Source: Candidatus Chloroheliales bacterium (lineage in GTDB: Bacteria; Chloroflexota; Chloroflexia; QHBQ01). Taken from it: 5,905 nt of DNA. Made by a program: the position numbers and the translations under genes. The first letter of the stretch is position 1. Each line of letters opens with the position of its first letter. The stretch lies in the NCBI GenBank assembly GCA_003243865.1, contig QHBQ01000343.1:1-5905 (forward strand). Reading direction: 5' to 3'. Positions 759-5,905 of this stretch are shown piece after piece. The notes beneath the pieces were generated by a model that ran no database searches, was not told the DNA's origin, and saw only the letters and a list, made by a program, of their open reading frames with translations.

Positions 759-791
759 GACGTGGCAGAGCGAAAGCGCATCAAAAATGGG

Positions 792-865
<74 letters not shown>

Positions 866-1633: not shown

Positions 1634-2530
1634 ATGGACAGCTATTATTACCGCAGCAGCCGCTATCGGATGTTCGACGATTACAGCGAACCGTTCGGCT
1701 GGTGGGGCGGCCACTGGTCGCCGCCGGTACCGCTCAGTGTCATCCAGATCATCGAGTCGGGCAGCATGAACGCGCGGATGGTTGCGCTCGCTTGGTTGAT
1801 GATCGAGCGGCACAACAGCCTGATGTTCGCCTCGGAGCCGCCGATGGCGGGCAAGACTACCACGATGACCGCCTTCATTGACTTCATCCCCCGCGACCAG
1901 CGCCGCATCTATCTGCGCGGGATGTATGAGAGCTTCCAGTTCGAGGAGGATGGCAAGGGCCAGCCCCCCAACTCCTGGCTGCTAGTCAACGAGTTCAGCA
2001 ACCACCTGCCCACTTACCTGTGGGGACCGAAGGCGAGTCGCGCCTTCAGCCTGCTCGAAGAAGGCTACTGCCTGGGCGGCACGATGCACGCTGACAGCGC
2101 CGAGGAGGCGGTTGCCCAGTTGCACCACGAACTAGGTGTCTCCGACGAGGAGCTTGCCCAGCTTGGCCTGCTGTTCATCGTGCGAATGTACAACACCCGT
2201 ACTGGTCGCCCCATCCGCGATGAGTACGAGATGCCCTACGGCTCGAACGCAGTGCTGCGCCGCGTCGCCACCGGCCATCTGCTCTCGCTCGGTGACGACG
2301 GCAAGCTCAAGCTCAATCTGTTCACCCGCTGGGAGCGCACTGGCGACCACCACAACCTTACCCTCGAACCGCACCTGCCGCTGTTCGCTGCCCGCACCGG
2401 CCTTAGCGTGGAGCGGGTCATCGCCGAACTCGACAAGCGCGAACAGTATCTCACCGAACTATGCGCCAGGGGTATCCACTCCATCTCCGCCGTGCGCGAG
2501 GCGATTGACCGATTTAGGCATGAGGCATGA
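1634..2530 (+). CDS. Stand-alone catalytic core of a FlaI/CpaF/VirB11-type secretion ATPase
   Basis: A 298-residue P-loop ATPase resembling the C-terminal half of type II/IV secretion, pilus and archaellum ATPases. Residues 1-30 are Tyr/Trp-rich and unlike anything I recognise. From 36 on, the pattern follows archaeal-type members: IIESGSMNARM, then Walker A EPPMAGKT (68-75), TTTMTAFIDFIP (75-86), Walker B WLLVNE (115-120) with Glu120, and a histidine box GTMHADSAEEA (149-159). The tail has the family pattern GLSVERVIAELDKREQYL (256-273). Oddities: the first Walker A glycine is Glu68, the acidic Asp box after the P-loop is replaced by IYLRG (92-96), and the family's N-terminal domain is absent (members are usually well over 340 residues). 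AAAGG six bases before the ATG supports the start. The stop lies inside a 7-bp tandem repeat, so the last residues RHEA come from that repeat. Cytoplasmic; the partner is unknown. The next two genes suggest a shared machine, which is inference. Confidence 0.85.
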   Translation: MDSYYYRSSRYRMFDDYSEPFGWWGGHWSPPVPLSVIQIIESGSMNARMVALAWLMIERHNSLMFASEPPMAGKTTTMTAFIDFIPRDQRRIYLRGMYESFQFEEDGKGQPPNSWLLVNEFSNHLPTYLWGPKASRAFSLLEEGYCLGGTMHADSAEEAVAQLHHELGVSDEELAQLGLLFIVRMYNTRTGRPIRDEYEMPYGSNAVLRRVATGHLLSLGDDGKLKLNLFTRWERTGDHHNLTLEPHLPLFAARTGLSVERVIAELDKREQYLTELCARGIHSISAVREAIDRFRHEA

Positions 2531-2543
2531 GGCATGAGGCATG
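2516..2543. repeat. AGGCATG tandem repeat, four copies, across a stop codon
   Basis: Four perfect head-to-tail copies of AGGCATG (2516-2522, 2523-2529, 2530-2536, 2537-2543). The secretion-type ATPase gene ends inside it, reading AGG CAT GAG GCA TGA, with the stop at 2528-2530. The unit length is not a multiple of three. The reading frame nevertheless ends within the first 15 bases, so gaining copies, or losing one, would leave the protein unchanged. Confidence 0.95.
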
Positions 2544-2556
2544 AGTGTTGCAAAAA

Positions 2557-2670
2557 CCCCCCAGTGGTGGAAATCTCTCCCTCTACTACTAAGCCCCCAG
2601 CGGGGGTTGGGGGAGAAATCTCGCCTCCTCTACTACTAAGCCCCCAGCGGGGGTTGGGGGAGAAATCTCG
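2557..2670. repeat. 44-bp direct repeat with CCCCC/GGGGG palindrome, plus a degenerate third copy
   Basis: Two identical 44-base copies (2580-2623 and 2627-2670) lie 47 bases apart. Each contains CTACTACTAAG, then a CCCCC-AGC-GGGGG hairpin (2594-2606 and 2641-2653), TTGGGGG and AGAAATCTCG. A degraded copy, CCCCCCAG...AAATCTC (2557-2577), precedes them. These are the same C-arm/G-arm/TTGGG type of element as at 1456 and 4159. A small open frame through here encodes only repeat sequence and is not called. Confidence 0.9.
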
Positions 2671-2694
2671 AAGCGACGACCATGTTTATCGCAA
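2670..2694 (+). promoter_or_regulatory. Shared upstream motif, copy 1 (GAAGCG-N6-ATGTTTATCG)
   Basis: GAAGCG (2670-2675), six bases, then ATGTTTATCGCAA (2682-2694), 54 bases before the start of the AAA+ gene. Nearly the same arrangement recurs at 4239-4262, 66 bases before the vWA gene. It may be a regulatory site or the conserved edge of the neighbouring repeat family. I cannot decide which, and no convincing -35/-10 pair is visible here. Confidence 0.4.
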
Positions 2695-2748
2695 GCACGA
2701 ATATCTAACTTACTAATCACTCAAACTGTGAAGGGAGCAATAAACAAA

Positions 2749-4146
2749 ATGGCCCATTCAGCCAAAACACTAGGTGAACTGAAAGCACAAGGCTACAAGC
2801 CACTCAGCGTTAAAGAGGAGCTACGCAAGAACCTTATTGAGAAGATTCGCAACGGCAACGAGATTTTCCCCGGCATCATCGGCTATGAGGATACCGTCAT
2901 TCCCCAGGTCGAAAACGCAATCATGTCCGGGCAGGACATCGTGATGCTCGGTGAGCGCGGCCAGGCTAAGACCCGTATCGCCCGCAGCCTTATCAACCTG
3001 CTCGACGAAGAGATCCCCGTCATTCGCGGCACCGAACTGAACGATGACCCCTTCAATCCGGTCTCCGCGCTGGGGCGGCAGATCCTGACCGAGTGCGGCG
3101 ACGATACCCCGATTGACTGGCTGCCGCGCGAGGCCCGCTACGGCGAGAAGCTCGCCACCCCCGACATCACCATCGCCGACCTGATCGGTGAGGTTGACCC
3201 GATCAAAGTGGCCGAGGGTCGCTACCTCTCCGATGAACTGACCATCCACTACGGGCTGGTGCCGCGCACCAATCGCGGCATCTTCTGCCTCAACGAATTG
3301 CCCGACCTGGCCGAGCGTATTCAGGTGGGGATGCTCAACATCATGGAGGAGCGCGACGTGCAGATTCGCGGCTATAAGGTGCGCCTTGACCTTGACCTGT
3401 TCGTGATCGCTTCGGCCAACCCTGAAGACTACACCAATCGCGGGCGCATCATCACCCCGCTGAAAGACCGCTTTGGCAGCGAGATCCGCACCCACTATCC
3501 GCGCACTATCCAGCACGAGATTGACATCATGGAGCGCGAGTCGGCGCAGTACATCACCGACGGCTACAGCGTGGCCGTTCCTGCCTACATGAAGGAGATC
3601 GTCGCCGAGCTAACCCACCTCGCCCGCCGCAGCCCCGACATCAACCAGCGCAGCGGCGTCAGCGTGCGGGTCAGCATCGCCAACTATGAGAACCTGGTCA
3701 GCCACGCGCTACTCCGCGCGGTGCGTCTCAACGAGAAGCAGGCCGCCCCGCGCATCAGCGATCTGCCCAGCGTGGTAGCTAGCACTCTCGGCAAGGTGGA
3801 GTTGGAGAGCAGCGGCGATGGCCGCGAGGAGAAGGTGGTGGACAAGCTGATGCAGGGCGCGGTGCTCAACGTCTTCAACCGCTACTTCAACGCCGGTCAT
3901 TTCGAGGACATCGTGCGCGGCTTCGAGAGTGGTCAGCGCATCGAGACCGGCGACCTGATGCCCACAATGGAGTACGTCAAGCAGGCGTCGAGTATCGAGG
4001 GGCTGAAGAACGCGCTAGGCAAGCTCAACGCCCACGGCAACCCCGCCGCCATCGCCAGCGCCGTCGAGTTCGTGCTGGAGGGCTTGCACCTCAACCGTCG
4101 CCTCAACAAGGACAAGGCCGAGGGCCGCGCCCGCTACCGCCGCTAA
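2749..4146 (+). CDS. MoxR/Mg-chelatase-like AAA+ ATPase
   Basis: A 465-residue AAA+ ATPase of the MoxR/ChlI (helix-2-insert) branch. In sequence: Walker A GERGQAKT (68-75, the G-x-x-G-x-A-K-T form typical of MoxR), Walker B IFCLNE (178-183) in the string NELPDLAERIQV, sensor 1 Asn224 in SANPEDYTN, a likely arginine finger at Arg241 in PLKDRF, and sensor 2 Arg307 in RSGVSVRV. A helical C-terminal region follows, with a basic tail. Asn182 replaces the usual Walker B Asp; as I recall this is normal for the NELPDL subgroup. The family assembles into rings that remodel partners using ATP, commonly with a vWA protein encoded alongside, as here. I prefer ATG 2749 to an in-frame GTG at 2728: AAGGGAG lies 11 bases before the ATG and nothing like it precedes the GTG. 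The 218-base gap upstream is filled by repeats. Cytoplasmic. Annotation pipelines may label it magnesium chelatase or sigma-54-interacting, but no chelatase partners are seen. Confidence 0.93.
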   Translation: MAHSAKTLGELKAQGYKPLSVKEELRKNLIEKIRNGNEIFPGIIGYEDTVIPQVENAIMSGQDIVMLGERGQAKTRIARSLINLLDEEIPVIRGTELNDDPFNPVSALGRQILTECGDDTPIDWLPREARYGEKLATPDITIADLIGEVDPIKVAEGRYLSDELTIHYGLVPRTNRGIFCLNELPDLAERIQVGMLNIMEERDVQIRGYKVRLDLDLFVIASANPEDYTNRGRIITPLKDRFGSEIRTHYPRTIQHEIDIMERESAQYITDGYSVAVPAYMKEIVAELTHLARRSPDINQRSGVSVRVSIANYENLVSHALLRAVRLNEKQAAPRISDLPSVVASTLGKVELESSGDGREEKVVDKLMQGAVLNVFNRYFNAGHFEDIVRGFESGQRIETGDLMPTMEYVKQASSIEGLKNALGKLNAHGNPAAIASAVEFVLEGLHLNRRLNKDKAEGRARYRR

Positions 4147-4158
4147 ACCAACGCCGAT

Positions 4159-4234
4159 CCCCTCTCCCCACCAGGGAGAGGGGGTTAGGGTACTTCCCCC
4201 TCTCCCCACCGGGGGAGAGGGTTGGGGAGAGGGG
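4159..4234. repeat. Two tandem C-rich/G-rich hairpin repeats with a G-quadruplex-like run
   Basis: Hairpin 1 is CCCCTCTCCC (4159-4168) with GGGAGAGGGG (4174-4183), loop 5, followed by GTTAGGG. Hairpin 2 is CCCTCTCCCC (4198-4207) with GGGGAGAGGG (4212-4221), loop 4, followed by TTGGGGAGAGGGG. Both stems are 10 bp and perfect, with equivalent sequences 38 bases apart. They lie just after the AAA+ gene stop, and no T-run follows. Four G-runs at 4211-4234 fit the G3+N1-7 quadruplex pattern on the coding strand. Confidence 0.88.
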
Positions 4235-4238
4235 TGGT

Positions 4239-4262
4239 GAAGCGCACCAATGTTTATCGTAA
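4239..4262 (+). promoter_or_regulatory. Shared upstream motif, copy 2 (GAAGCG-N5-ATGTTTATCG)
   Basis: GAAGCG (4239-4244), five bases, then ATGTTTATCGTAA (4250-4262). The 13-base part differs from copy 1 at 2682-2694 by one base. As in copy 1, it directly follows a G-rich repeat tail and precedes a gene by some 60 bases. Confidence 0.4.
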
Positions 4263-4328
4263 CTGCTATATTCACAGAGTAATGACATATTAGAGATTTG
4301 TCCAGGGTTATAGAAACGAGGCTTAATT

Positions 4329-5905
4329 ATGAGCGAAGATAGATACCCCGGCTGGCAGTATTCCAACTGGGACGGCAGCCAGGAGATTAACCCATTCGAT
4401 GCCGACGCGCTGATGGAGCAGATGTCCGACGAGTTGCTCGCAGAGGGCGACATCTGGCGGGCGCTGCGCCAGATGCAGCAGTGGGGCGCGCAAGGGCCGA
4501 ACGGTGAGCGTATCGAGGGCTTGCAGCAGATGATGGAGCGGCTACGCGAGCAACGCAAGGCCCGCCAACGCGCCTACAATATGGACTCGGTGATGGACGA
4601 CATCCGCCAGAAGCTGGGGCAGATCGTCGAAGCCGAGCGGGCTGGCATCCAGCGCCGCGTTGATGAAGCGCGAGACGATACCCAGCAAGGTCAGCAAGGA
4701 CAACAAAATCAGCAGGGTCAGCAGGGCGAGCAGCCCGACTTTAGCAAGCTGCTCGAAAAGATGGCCCAGCGCAAGCAGGACTTCCTCAACCAACTGCCGC
4801 AGGATGTTCCCAGCCAGATTCAGCAGCTATCCGACTATGAGTTCATGGACACCGACGCCCGCCAGCAGTTCCAGGAGCTGCTCGATATGCTCAAGCAGCA
4901 GGTGATGCAGGCGCAGTTCCAGGGCATCCAGCAGAGCATCAAGGACATGACCCCCGAAGACCTGGCCGCCATCCGCGAGATGGTCAAGGACCTCAACCAG
5001 ATGCTGCAGCAGCGGGCCAGCGGTATCGAACCCGACTTCCAGGCGTTCAAGGAGAAGCATGGTCACTTCTTCCCGCCGGAGATAAACAGCCTCGACGAAC
5101 TGATGCAGTATCTGCAAGAGCAACGGGCGCGGATGCAGGCGATGCTCAACAGTATGTCCGCCGAGCAACGTGCCGAGTTGCAGCAGATGATGGATCAACT
5201 GCTGCAAGATGACCGCCTCGCCTGGGACCTTGCCCAAATGGGCGCCTACCTCGACATGATGATGCCGATGGAAGCTGACGGCTATCGCTTCAGCGGCAGC
5301 CAATCACTGTCGCTAGATCAGGCCATGGACCTGATGGGCCAGTTGCAGGGCATGGATCGGCTCGAAGAGCAGATGCGCGAGGCGCAGTACACTGGCGACC
5401 TGAGCGAGATAGACGCCGACCAGTTGGCCGATCTGCTCGGCCCTGACATGAAGAACCGCCTGGACCAGCTGCAGTCGCTGACCAAGATGCTGGAGGAGGC
5501 GGGCTACATCGAGAAGAAGGGCGACCGCTACGAGCTAACTCCGCGCGGCATTCGGCGCATCGGTCAGAAGGCGCTGCACGACATCTTCGCCCAGCTACGC
5601 AAAGATCGTTTCGGCAACCACGAGGCCCAGAAGCGCGGTGTAGGCGGCGAACGCACCGACGATACCAAGCGTTACGAGTTTGGCGACCCCTTCCTGCTCG
5701 ACCTGAAGAAGACCATCATGAACGGAGTGGAGCGGGTAGGCAAGGGCAGCCCCCTTCAGCTTGCCCCTGAAGATTTCGAGGTCTATCGCACCGAACTGAT
5801 GACCCAATCCTCCACCGTGCTGATGGTGGACATGAGCCGCTCGATGGTGCTGCGCGGCTGCTTCGCCGCCGCCAAGAAGGTTGCGCTGGCGCTCAACAGC
5901 CTGAT
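4329..5905 (+). CDS. vWA domain protein with long Gln-rich helical N-terminus, partner of the AAA+ ATPase; 3' end beyond the window
   Basis: Open from ATG 4329 to the edge (525 codons visible). GAGG seven bases upstream supports the start. Residues 1-135 are charged and helical, ending in a QQG-rich tract (119-135). Residues about 136-350 are rich in Gln, Met and Leu and look like long amphipathic helices or coiled coils. Residues about 374-420 resemble a winged helix (LEEAGYIEKKGDRYELTPRGIRRIG). A conserved-looking stretch RYEFGDPFLLDL (448-459) follows, then the vWA domain begins: TVLMVDMSRSM, with MIDAS residues Asp501, Ser503 and Ser505, followed by an AAKKVALAL helix. No signal peptide or membrane segment is visible, so it is probably cytoplasmic. 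The intact MIDAS implies metal-dependent binding of a target. With the MoxR-like ATPase upstream, it should act as the adaptor or substrate-recognition half of a remodelling machine; the substrate is unknown. The remaining MIDAS loops lie outside the window. Confidence 0.93.
   Translation, partial: MSEDRYPGWQYSNWDGSQEINPFDADALMEQMSDELLAEGDIWRALRQMQQWGAQGPNGERIEGLQQMMERLREQRKARQRAYNMDSVMDDIRQKLGQIVEAERAGIQRRVDEARDDTQQGQQGQQNQQGQQGEQPDFSKLLEKMAQRKQDFLNQLPQDVPSQIQQLSDYEFMDTDARQQFQELLDMLKQQVMQAQFQGIQQSIKDMTPEDLAAIREMVKDLNQMLQQRASGIEPDFQAFKEKHGHFFPPEINSLDELMQYLQEQRARMQAMLNSMSAEQRAELQQMMDQLLQDDRLAWDLAQMGAYLDMMMPMEADGYRFSGSQSLSLDQAMDLMGQLQGMDRLEEQMREAQYTGDLSEIDADQLADLLGPDMKNRLDQLQSLTKMLEEAGYIEKKGDRYELTPRGIRRIGQKALHDIFAQLRKDRFGNHEAQKRGVGGERTDDTKRYEFGDPFLLDLKKTIMNGVERVGKGSPLQLAPEDFEVYRTELMTQSSTVLMVDMSRSMVLRGCFAAAKKVALALNSL
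4683..4733 (+). repeat. Gln/Gly codon repeat inside the vWA gene
   Basis: These 17 codons encode QQG-type repeats (QQGQQGQQNQQGQQGEQ) built from near-repeats of CAGCAAGGT. The in-frame tract probably forms a flexible linker between helical regions and may vary in length between strains. Confidence 0.85.

What the first reader, a model, noticed from the sequence alone, without database searches (positions are those of the whole stretch)
1634..5905. Secretion-ATPase core encoded beside a MoxR/vWA pair
A MoxR-like AAA+ ATPase with a vWA protein is a known pairing. Here it is preceded, in the same direction, by a P-loop ATPase of the FlaI/CpaF/VirB11 superfamily with no visible pilin, prepilin peptidase or membrane platform gene. 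The three could form one complex with two different ATPases, or the secretion-type ATPase could be a regulator or substrate of the MoxR/vWA machine. The role is inference; the gene order and motifs are directly visible.
Basis: partly seen in the sequence, partly recalled or inferred. Interest (0 to 1): 0.72.

Follow-up and report, generated by a model that had tools for sequence, protein, structure and literature searches.

The report
Pilus-motor core joined to AAA+/vWA machine
A cut-down relative of pilus and secretion motors, which has lost parts those motors need, is encoded beside a protein-remodelling AAA+/vWA pair in many Chloroflexota bacteria, and is more likely a partner of that pair than a pilus motor.

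Summary
The window carries three genes in one direction: a 298-aa FlaI/GspE-type ATPase core, a ChlI/MoxR-type AAA+ ATPase and a vWA protein that the window cuts off. The first belongs to a family (here T2L) whose named members are Chloroflexota. Among 36 loci whose T2L has an N-terminal WWG motif (window included), the AAA+ gene starts within 2 kb downstream on the same strand in 29 (within 300 bp in 27). A second subfamily (45 loci) is never beside the pair. In 400 Chloroflexota genomes, 86 of 94 with T2L have the AAA+ gene, against 90 of 306 others; the pilus/secretion platform T2SSF shows no such tie (59 of 94 against 223 of 306), and 34 T2L genomes lack it even when every candidate is scored. 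T2L keeps Walker A, the Walker B Glu and the His box, but lacks the N-terminal domain and has no conserved Arg at the arginine-finger site of PilT/VirB11 motors; two operon members have lost the P-loop too. Best reading: a repurposed NTP-binding adaptor, switch or client of the AAA+/vWA machine, not a secretion motor. Function is inferred; co-occurrence is not kinship-corrected.

The parts
1634..2530 (+). T2L: 298-aa FlaI/GspE-type ATPase core (C-terminal ATPase half only)
1691..1738 (+). N-terminal PxxWWGxxWxxPxPxS motif (residues 20-35); its WWG marks the subfamily that is mostly operon-linked
   Evidence: conserved columns; WWG in 36 of 107 loci, in 0 of 45 group-B loci
1835..1861 (+). Walker A (EPPMAGKTT; K74 at 1853-1855)
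   Evidence: G73 and K74 invariant in A1 and A5
1928..1930 (+). E99, at the same distance from the Walker A Lys (25 residues) as the Mg-coordinating Asp-box Glu of CpaF
   Evidence: Glu in 76 of 88 rows
1988..1999 (+). NExS motif with Walker-B-type Glu E120
   Evidence: E120 in 87 of 88 rows, the other a gap
2081..2092 (+). His box TMHA (H152)
   Evidence: H152 invariant in A1 and A5
2749..4146 (+). ChlI/MoxR-type AAA+ ATPase, 465 aa from the likely start ATG 2749 (the mechanical ORF starts at GTG 2728)
4329..5905 (+). vWA protein, N-terminal 525 aa; cut by the window end (a 94%-identical relative has 683 aa)
5829..5843 (+). MIDAS loop DMSRS of the vWA domain
   Evidence: sequence; MIDAS residues invariant in the 14 rows of A3

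Best explanation
T2L is a repurposed core of an archaeal-type GspE/FlaI pilus ATPase that now works as a third, lineage-specific component of a conserved ChlI/MoxR-type AAA+ - vWA remodelling machine in Chloroflexota. Shown by computation: the fold (predicted model), the retained NTP-site residues, the missing N-terminal domain and arginine-finger site, the gene order, and the co-occurrence. Inferred: T2L binds NTP but does not drive a hexameric rotary motor. It acts as a nucleotide-dependent adaptor, switch or client that the AAA+/vWA pair engages and remodels or resets, any hydrolysis being stimulated in trans. In lineages with a P-loop-less T2L only the adaptor role would remain. The final target of the machine is unknown.
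For: Operon: the AAA+ gene starts within 2 kb downstream on the same strand in 29 of 36 WWG-type loci (window included; 27 of 36 within 300 bp) and in 5 of 71 others; 11 have a 4-bp overlap. T2L-linked AAA+ genes fall in several places of the AAA+ tree (4 changes, at least 2 forced by supported branches). In L131 the vWA gene instead lies just upstream of T2L on the same strand. Co-occurrence: 86 of 94 T2L genomes have the AAA+ gene against 90 of 306 others, odds ratio 25.8; for T2SSF 59 of 94 against 223 of 306, odds ratio 0.63, p 0.07; with all candidates scored 34 of the 35 T2SSF-less T2L genomes still have none. Anatomy: model pLDDT 92.1, aligned to residues 202-500 of archaeal GspE at 2.2 A over 245 residues. 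Walker A Lys to Asp-box Glu is 25 residues in T2L and CpaF; Asp-box Glu to Walker B Glu is 21 instead of 45; the column that answers to CpaF arginine finger R347 by spacing is never R/K in 88 rows. L100 and L101 keep the operon place without Walker A Lys, Walker B Glu and His-box His.
Against: Group-B homologues (45 loci) are never beside the pair; 39 of 45 have a histidine phosphatase gene upstream and 28 of 45 a glycosyltransferase gene downstream, so T2L can have another setting. Five WWG-type loci with room downstream (L121, L127, L134, L137, L139) are also unlinked. Co-occurrence is not corrected for kinship, and group B is one clade of the AAA+ tree. Eight T2L genomes have no AAA+ match even at E<=1e-10 with all candidates scored. 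T2L distances follow those of the AAA+ protein (r 0.81) less closely than vWA does (0.94), and the T2L-vWA correlation given AAA+ is only 0.10 (32 loci): no sign of coevolution beyond common inheritance. 90 AAA+ genomes have no clear T2L hit, so the pair can do without it. Arg or Lys stands in about 40% of rows at two nearby columns (105 and 113), so a displaced arginine finger is not excluded for part of the family. Unlinked divergent T2L paralogues occur in six genomes that carry the operon. No complex was modelled; no biochemistry was found.
Confidence: 0.5

Rival explanations
1. Co-regulation only: T2L has its own task (for instance a nucleotide-sensing or nucleotide-handling role, as its histidine-phosphatase/glycosyltransferase setting in group B might hint) and shares a transcript with the AAA+/vWA pair without physical contact.
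For: 45 group-B loci lie away from the pair in another conserved setting; unlinked divergent paralogues exist in six operon-bearing genomes; coevolution signal no stronger than common inheritance; 8 of 94 T2L genomes without the AAA+ gene.
Against: The gene order is kept over deep divergence and in several clades, with a 4-bp overlap in 11 loci; 40 of 44 group-B genomes still have the AAA+ gene; other arrangement in L131.
Confidence: 0.25
2. T2L is a motor or regulator of a type IV/Tad pilus or secretion system encoded elsewhere in the genome, and the AAA+/vWA pair regulates that system, as proposed for archaeal T4P loci.
For: Fold and ancestry; 31 of 32 tested genomes with the operon encode T2SSF, and 31 of 32 a prepilin peptidase, elsewhere; a vWA/GvpN-like pair is linked to thaumarchaeal T4P loci (PMC4858521, passages).
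Against: 34 of 94 T2L genomes have no T2SSF match at E<=1e-3 with all candidates scored, among them 29 group-B genomes that have the AAA+ gene; N-terminal domain and arginine-finger site missing; two operon members without P-loop; nearest platform or peptidase gene on the same contig about 180 kb away. The T2SSF-less genomes are nearly all of the unlinked subfamily, so this weighs less for the linked one.
Confidence: 0.1
3. A conflict (defence-like) system of the MoxR-vWA ternary kind, with T2L in place of the VMAP or iSTAND third component.
For: Same plan: MoxR + vWA + a third NTPase that can be inactive (PMC7159879).
Against: No effector domain by Pfam on the L001 and L115 vWA proteins; the precomputed Pfam entries of the 120 listed vWA homologues are nearly all the same few families; the AAA+ protein is highly conserved (67% mean column identity in 14 rows) and has one match in 172 of 176 genomes at 1e-80 (at most 4 candidates scored), unlike diversifying systems; one marginal PADLOC hit only (E 0.0093).
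Confidence: 0.06
4. The pair is a metal chelatase or insertase, and T2L is its target or a cofactor-loading NTPase.
For: Nearest solved relatives of the AAA+ protein are ChlI subunits; NorQD inserts metal with an AAA+/vWA pair (PMC13036017 abstract).
Against: No Cys among the invariant or nearly invariant T2L columns listed. A conserved metalloenzyme neighbour was not looked for systematically.
Confidence: 0.09

Closest known systems
Archaeal GspE (2oap/2oaq) and archaellum motor FlaI (4ihq, 4ii7)
   Different: N-terminal domain (about 200 residues) absent; by my count on the alignment about 22 residues, with the arginine-finger helix, are missing between Asp box and Walker B; the IED of the Asp box is replaced (RG in the window; that Arg is absent from group B); an extra conserved NExSxHLPxYxWG stretch; no pilus gene beside it.
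Tad pilus motor CpaF/TadA (8rjf, 9e24)
   Different: Lacks the domain with arginine fingers R217 and R223, and has no conserved Arg at the R347 position.
MoxR-vWA ternary systems (VMAP, iSTAND, FtsH, beta-propeller; PMC7159879)
   Same: A MoxR-type AAA+ and vWA core with a third component that may be an NTPase, even an inactive one.
   Different: The third component is a GspE/FlaI core; no effector domains on the two vWA proteins scanned.
vWA (arCOG02900) + GvpN-like ATPase linked to thaumarchaeal T4P loci (PMC4858521)
   Same: A MoxR/GvpN-type ATPase and vWA gene pair linked to loci with a secretion ATPase.
   Different: There a pilus locus is present; here only a truncated ATPase core. Sequence kinship of the two pairs was not tested.
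NorQ-NorD, RavA-ViaA, Mg-chelatase I-D
   Same: AAA+ ATPase with a vWA partner (abstracts; for Mg-chelatase recalled).
   Different: No GspE/FlaI-type third gene is mentioned in the abstracts seen (NorQD, RavA-ViaA).

Membership tests
PilT/VirB11-like secretion ATPase motors | Walker A GKT/S, Walker B Glu, His-box His | tested here: met
   K74 and H152 invariant, E120 in 87 of 88 rows of A5; lost in the divergent relatives L100 and L101
PilT/VirB11-like secretion ATPase motors | N-terminal domain carrying arginine fingers (R217, R223 in CpaF) | tested here: not met
   73 residues precede the Walker A Lys, against 336 and 349 before Walker A in two full-length Chloroflexota relatives (stop-to-stop frames, so upper bounds; a third to fifth fetched region did not fit the search pattern); structural match starts at residue 202 of GspE
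PilT/VirB11-like secretion ATPase motors | Arginine finger of the C-terminal domain (R347 in CpaF, 10 residues before Walker B Glu) | tested here: not met
   Column 110 is Gln in the window, gap in 39 and Asp in 29 of 88 rows, never R/K; segment of 21 against 45 residues. R/K in about 40% of rows at columns 105 and 113, so a displaced Arg is not excluded in part of the family
PilT/VirB11-like secretion ATPase motors | Platform protein (T2SSF) in the genome and the locus | tested here: not met
   Genome: absent from 34 of 94 T2L genomes, present in 31 of 32 operon-type genomes. Locus: never within 180 kb on the same contig in those 32
MoxR/ChlI-clade AAA+ ATPases | AAA+ domain of the clade | tested here: met
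   AAA_5 and Sigma54_activat over cut-off, AAA_3 and Mg_chelatase just under; ChlI best in PDB
MoxR/ChlI-clade AAA+ ATPases | Place in a named MoxR subfamily (MRP, RavA, CGN, YehL and others; recalled) | not tested
   No subfamily tree was built
vWA co-factors with MIDAS | DxSxS, Thr and Asp of MIDAS | tested here: met
   D502, S504, S506, T565, D593 (L001 numbering) invariant in 14 rows; only DMSRS lies inside the window
MoxR-vWA ternary conflict systems (Kaur et al. 2020) | Third component VMAP, iSTAND or FtsH, or a beta-propeller on vWA | tested here: not met
   Third gene is GspE/FlaI-type; no beta-propeller on two vWA proteins scanned
MoxR-vWA ternary conflict systems (Kaur et al. 2020) | Variable effector domains fused to the vWA protein | tested here: not met
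   None by Pfam on the L001 and L115 proteins; other members only by the precomputed Pfam column

The most novel reading that the evidence does not exclude
A pilus-motor ATPase core was stripped of its motor parts and became a nucleotide switch or client of an AAA+/vWA remodelling machine: a further kind of MoxR-vWA three-part system, specific to Chloroflexota as far as named hits show, in which two unrelated P-loop ATPases work on one complex and the second can decay to a pseudo-ATPase.
Probability: 0.35. Interest if true: 0.68.

Novelty: new variant of a known kind. Interest (0 to 1): 0.52.

Why it matters
Targets of many MoxR-vWA pairs are unknown (recalled). A conserved third gene gives this subtype a testable partner. 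It would also show a secretion-motor ATPase core re-used outside secretion, and it flags an annotation trap: one source names a T2L member 'flagellar protein FlaI'.

Tried and rejected
Pilus or secretion locus nearby: PF00482 and PF01478 in 32 genomes; nearest on the same contig about 180 kb (G128); in most genomes these genes are on other contigs, and some T2L contigs are only 5-12 kb, so absence there says little. In G293 a full-length GspE-type ATPase gene lies about 24 kb from an unlinked T2L; not pursued.

Hidden degenerate T2L upstream of the AAA+ gene: looked for in 40 further AAA+ loci (20 of group-B genomes, 20 of genomes without a clear T2L hit); only L181 gave a hit. In these 40 a vWA gene lies beside the AAA+ gene in 36 (20 of 20 and 16 of 20).

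Histidine phosphatase as a general partner: conserved upstream of group-B T2L and present after vWA in L001, but the clustering put no other operon locus in that family; left as a side observation.

Defence system: one marginal PADLOC hit. Coevolution of T2L with vWA beyond that with AAA+: none seen. Fusions: of four T2L frames over 460 aa sent to Pfam, only L083 had another domain, an aldo/keto reductase. Weaker structural matches below the GspE/FlaI/CpaF/PilT group were not followed.

Limits and dropped rows: the T2L search scored at most 6, the AAA+ search at most 4 and the T2SSF search at most 10 candidates per genome, so some absences may be misses; I rechecked 35 T2SSF-less and 8 AAA+-less T2L genomes with all candidates scored (G286 gained one T2SSF match at 7.8e-8; nothing else changed). 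The odds ratios are from the first counts. Completeness of the genomes is not shown. One search had 209 of 400 genomes at E<=1e-3; I kept the 94 whose best match was about 1e-18 or better and dropped 115, many of whose listed matches look like full-length GspE-type ATPases (match only to residues 25-87, frames of 400-590 aa). For the motif and gene-order table I kept loci with T2L E<=1e-12 and dropped L097, L108, L110, L111, L112 (107 rows left). 'Linked' means same strand, AAA+ start within 2 kb downstream; in L122 (1.5 kb), L088, L089 (0.85 kb), L090 and L081 (0.4-0.5 kb) a gene between is possible. L181 was labelled linked by hand for the tree. Starts of ORFs are mechanical. Column counts are on 88 chosen homologues (A5). 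Both T2L homologue searches list only the best 120 rows, and the second scored only 8000 candidates.

Literature searched for a published link. Seen: passages of PMC4858521, PMC7159879 (plus its sections 7 and 20) and PMC12019362; abstract and outline of PMC13036017; others only as listings with the start of the abstract. In these listings and passages I met no description of a GspE/FlaI-type gene with MoxR-vWA in bacteria.
Full report
What is there. The window has a DUF309 gene, then three genes on the + strand: a 298-aa P-loop protein (called T2L here), a AAA+ ATPase and a vWA protein cut by the window end. No whole genome is held for the window, so I worked from relatives. The nearest, L001 (JANXYP010000363.1, a Chloroflexi MAG), has DUF309, T2L (89% identical), AAA+, an extra 342-aa gene, vWA (688 aa) and then a histidine phosphatase; reading its listed frames by eye I saw no pilus gene over 19.7 kb.

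The family and its neighbours. Homologue searches gave 229 (E<=1e-3) and 432 (E<=1e-5) proteins, 120 listed each time. Where a source names the organism in the listed rows it is Chloroflexota (Chloroflexia, Dehalococcoidia, Limnocylindria and unplaced); most rows have no name. Of 400 Chloroflexota genomes I kept 94 with a clear hit. Neighbourhoods of 107 loci, window included, fall into three sets. Group A (36 loci) has an invariant WWG near the N-terminus; the AAA+ gene starts within 2 kb downstream on the same strand in 29 (27 within 300 bp; 11 with a 4-bp overlap). Of the seven others, L128 ends near a contig edge, L131 has vWA directly upstream, and five (L121, L127, L134, L137, L139) are unlinked. 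Group B (45 loci) lacks WWG and is never beside the pair; 39 have a histidine phosphatase gene upstream and 28 a glycosyltransferase gene downstream. Group C (26 divergent loci) has the AAA+ gene within 2 kb downstream in five, two of which (L100, L101) have lost the P-loop Lys, Walker B Glu and His-box His.

Co-occurrence. The AAA+ gene (E<=1e-80) is in 176 of 400 genomes: 86 of 94 with T2L and 90 of 306 others (odds ratio 25.8). The eight T2L genomes without it stay without it at E<=1e-10 with all candidates scored. Of 44 group-B genomes 40 have the AAA+ gene; in the 20 whose locus I fetched it lies beside vWA. T2SSF (E<=1e-8) is in 282 of 400: 59 of 94 with T2L and 223 of 306 others (odds ratio 0.63, p 0.07). 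That search scored at most 10 candidates per genome, so I repeated it with all candidates on the 35 T2L genomes without a match: 34 of 35 still have none at E<=1e-3, G286 has one at 7.8e-8. Thus T2L follows the AAA+ gene and not the pilus platform. Kinship is not corrected for, so the p-values overstate the case, and most T2SSF-less genomes (32 of 35 in the first count) are of the unlinked group B. In a tree of 73 AAA+ proteins the T2L-linked ones need four changes (two forced by supported branches), so linkage was gained or lost more than once; group B is one clade. Tree distances of T2L, AAA+ and vWA correlate in 32 loci (T2L-AAA+ 0.81, T2L-vWA 0.79, AAA+-vWA 0.94), but T2L-vWA given AAA+ is 0.10, so there is no extra coevolution signal.

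How it may work. In NorQD a finger of the vWA protein enters the AAA+ pore and the ring twists a linker to enable metal insertion (PMC13036017, abstract). I propose, as inference, that the T2L-bearing pair works alike and that T2L supplies an NTP-bound surface that the vWA protein or AAA+ ring engages. Without its own arginine fingers T2L would hold NTP until a partner triggers release or hydrolysis. The P-loop-less members suggest that binding to the partner, not hydrolysis, is the shared need. The final target is unknown.

Comparison. Kaur et al. 2020 (PMC7159879, two sections and passages) describe four MoxR-vWA ternary systems, with VMAP, inactive STAND, FtsH or a beta-propeller. The present set fits the plan but not the third components, and the two vWA proteins scanned carry no effector domain. 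Makarova et al. 2016 (PMC4858521, passages) report a vWA/GvpN-like pair linked to thaumarchaeal T4P loci; that is the nearest published link between such a pair and a secretion ATPase that my searches showed, and it involves pilus loci. I therefore rate this a new variant of a known kind.

Verdict. Its claim of a functional unit is supported for one subfamily and weakly for the whole family; the secretion reading is not supported.

Noticed in passing
window 790-865 (-): tRNA-Val (anticodon CAC) upstream of the operon.
   Followed up: no
window 2580-2670: Two exact 44-nt direct repeats, 47 bp apart, between T2L and the AAA+ gene; by eye similar C/G-rich stretches lie near 1455 and 4160-4235.
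   Followed up: no
L001 11745-12773: 342-aa gene without Pfam hit, with hydrophobic stretches by eye, between the AAA+ and vWA genes; absent from the window.
   Followed up: partly
L035-L079: Group-B T2L sits after a histidine phosphatase gene (39 of 45) and before a glycosyltransferase gene (28 of 45); the one glycosyltransferase scanned also hits Pfam GT4-conflict. L001 has a histidine phosphatase gene right after vWA.
   Followed up: partly
L100, L101: T2L relatives without P-loop Lys, Walker B Glu or His-box His keep the operon place before AAA+ and vWA.
   Followed up: partly
L131 and L091: T2L beside vWA without the AAA+ gene in the fetched stretch: same strand just downstream of vWA in L131, opposite strand in L091.
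   Followed up: no
L083 4099-6027 (-): Aldo/keto reductase and a T2L-like part in one open frame, perhaps a fusion.
   Followed up: no
L092, L094, L096, L098, L099, L103: Divergent, unlinked T2L paralogues in genomes that also carry the operon (G173, G165, G301, G376, G252, G125).
   Followed up: no
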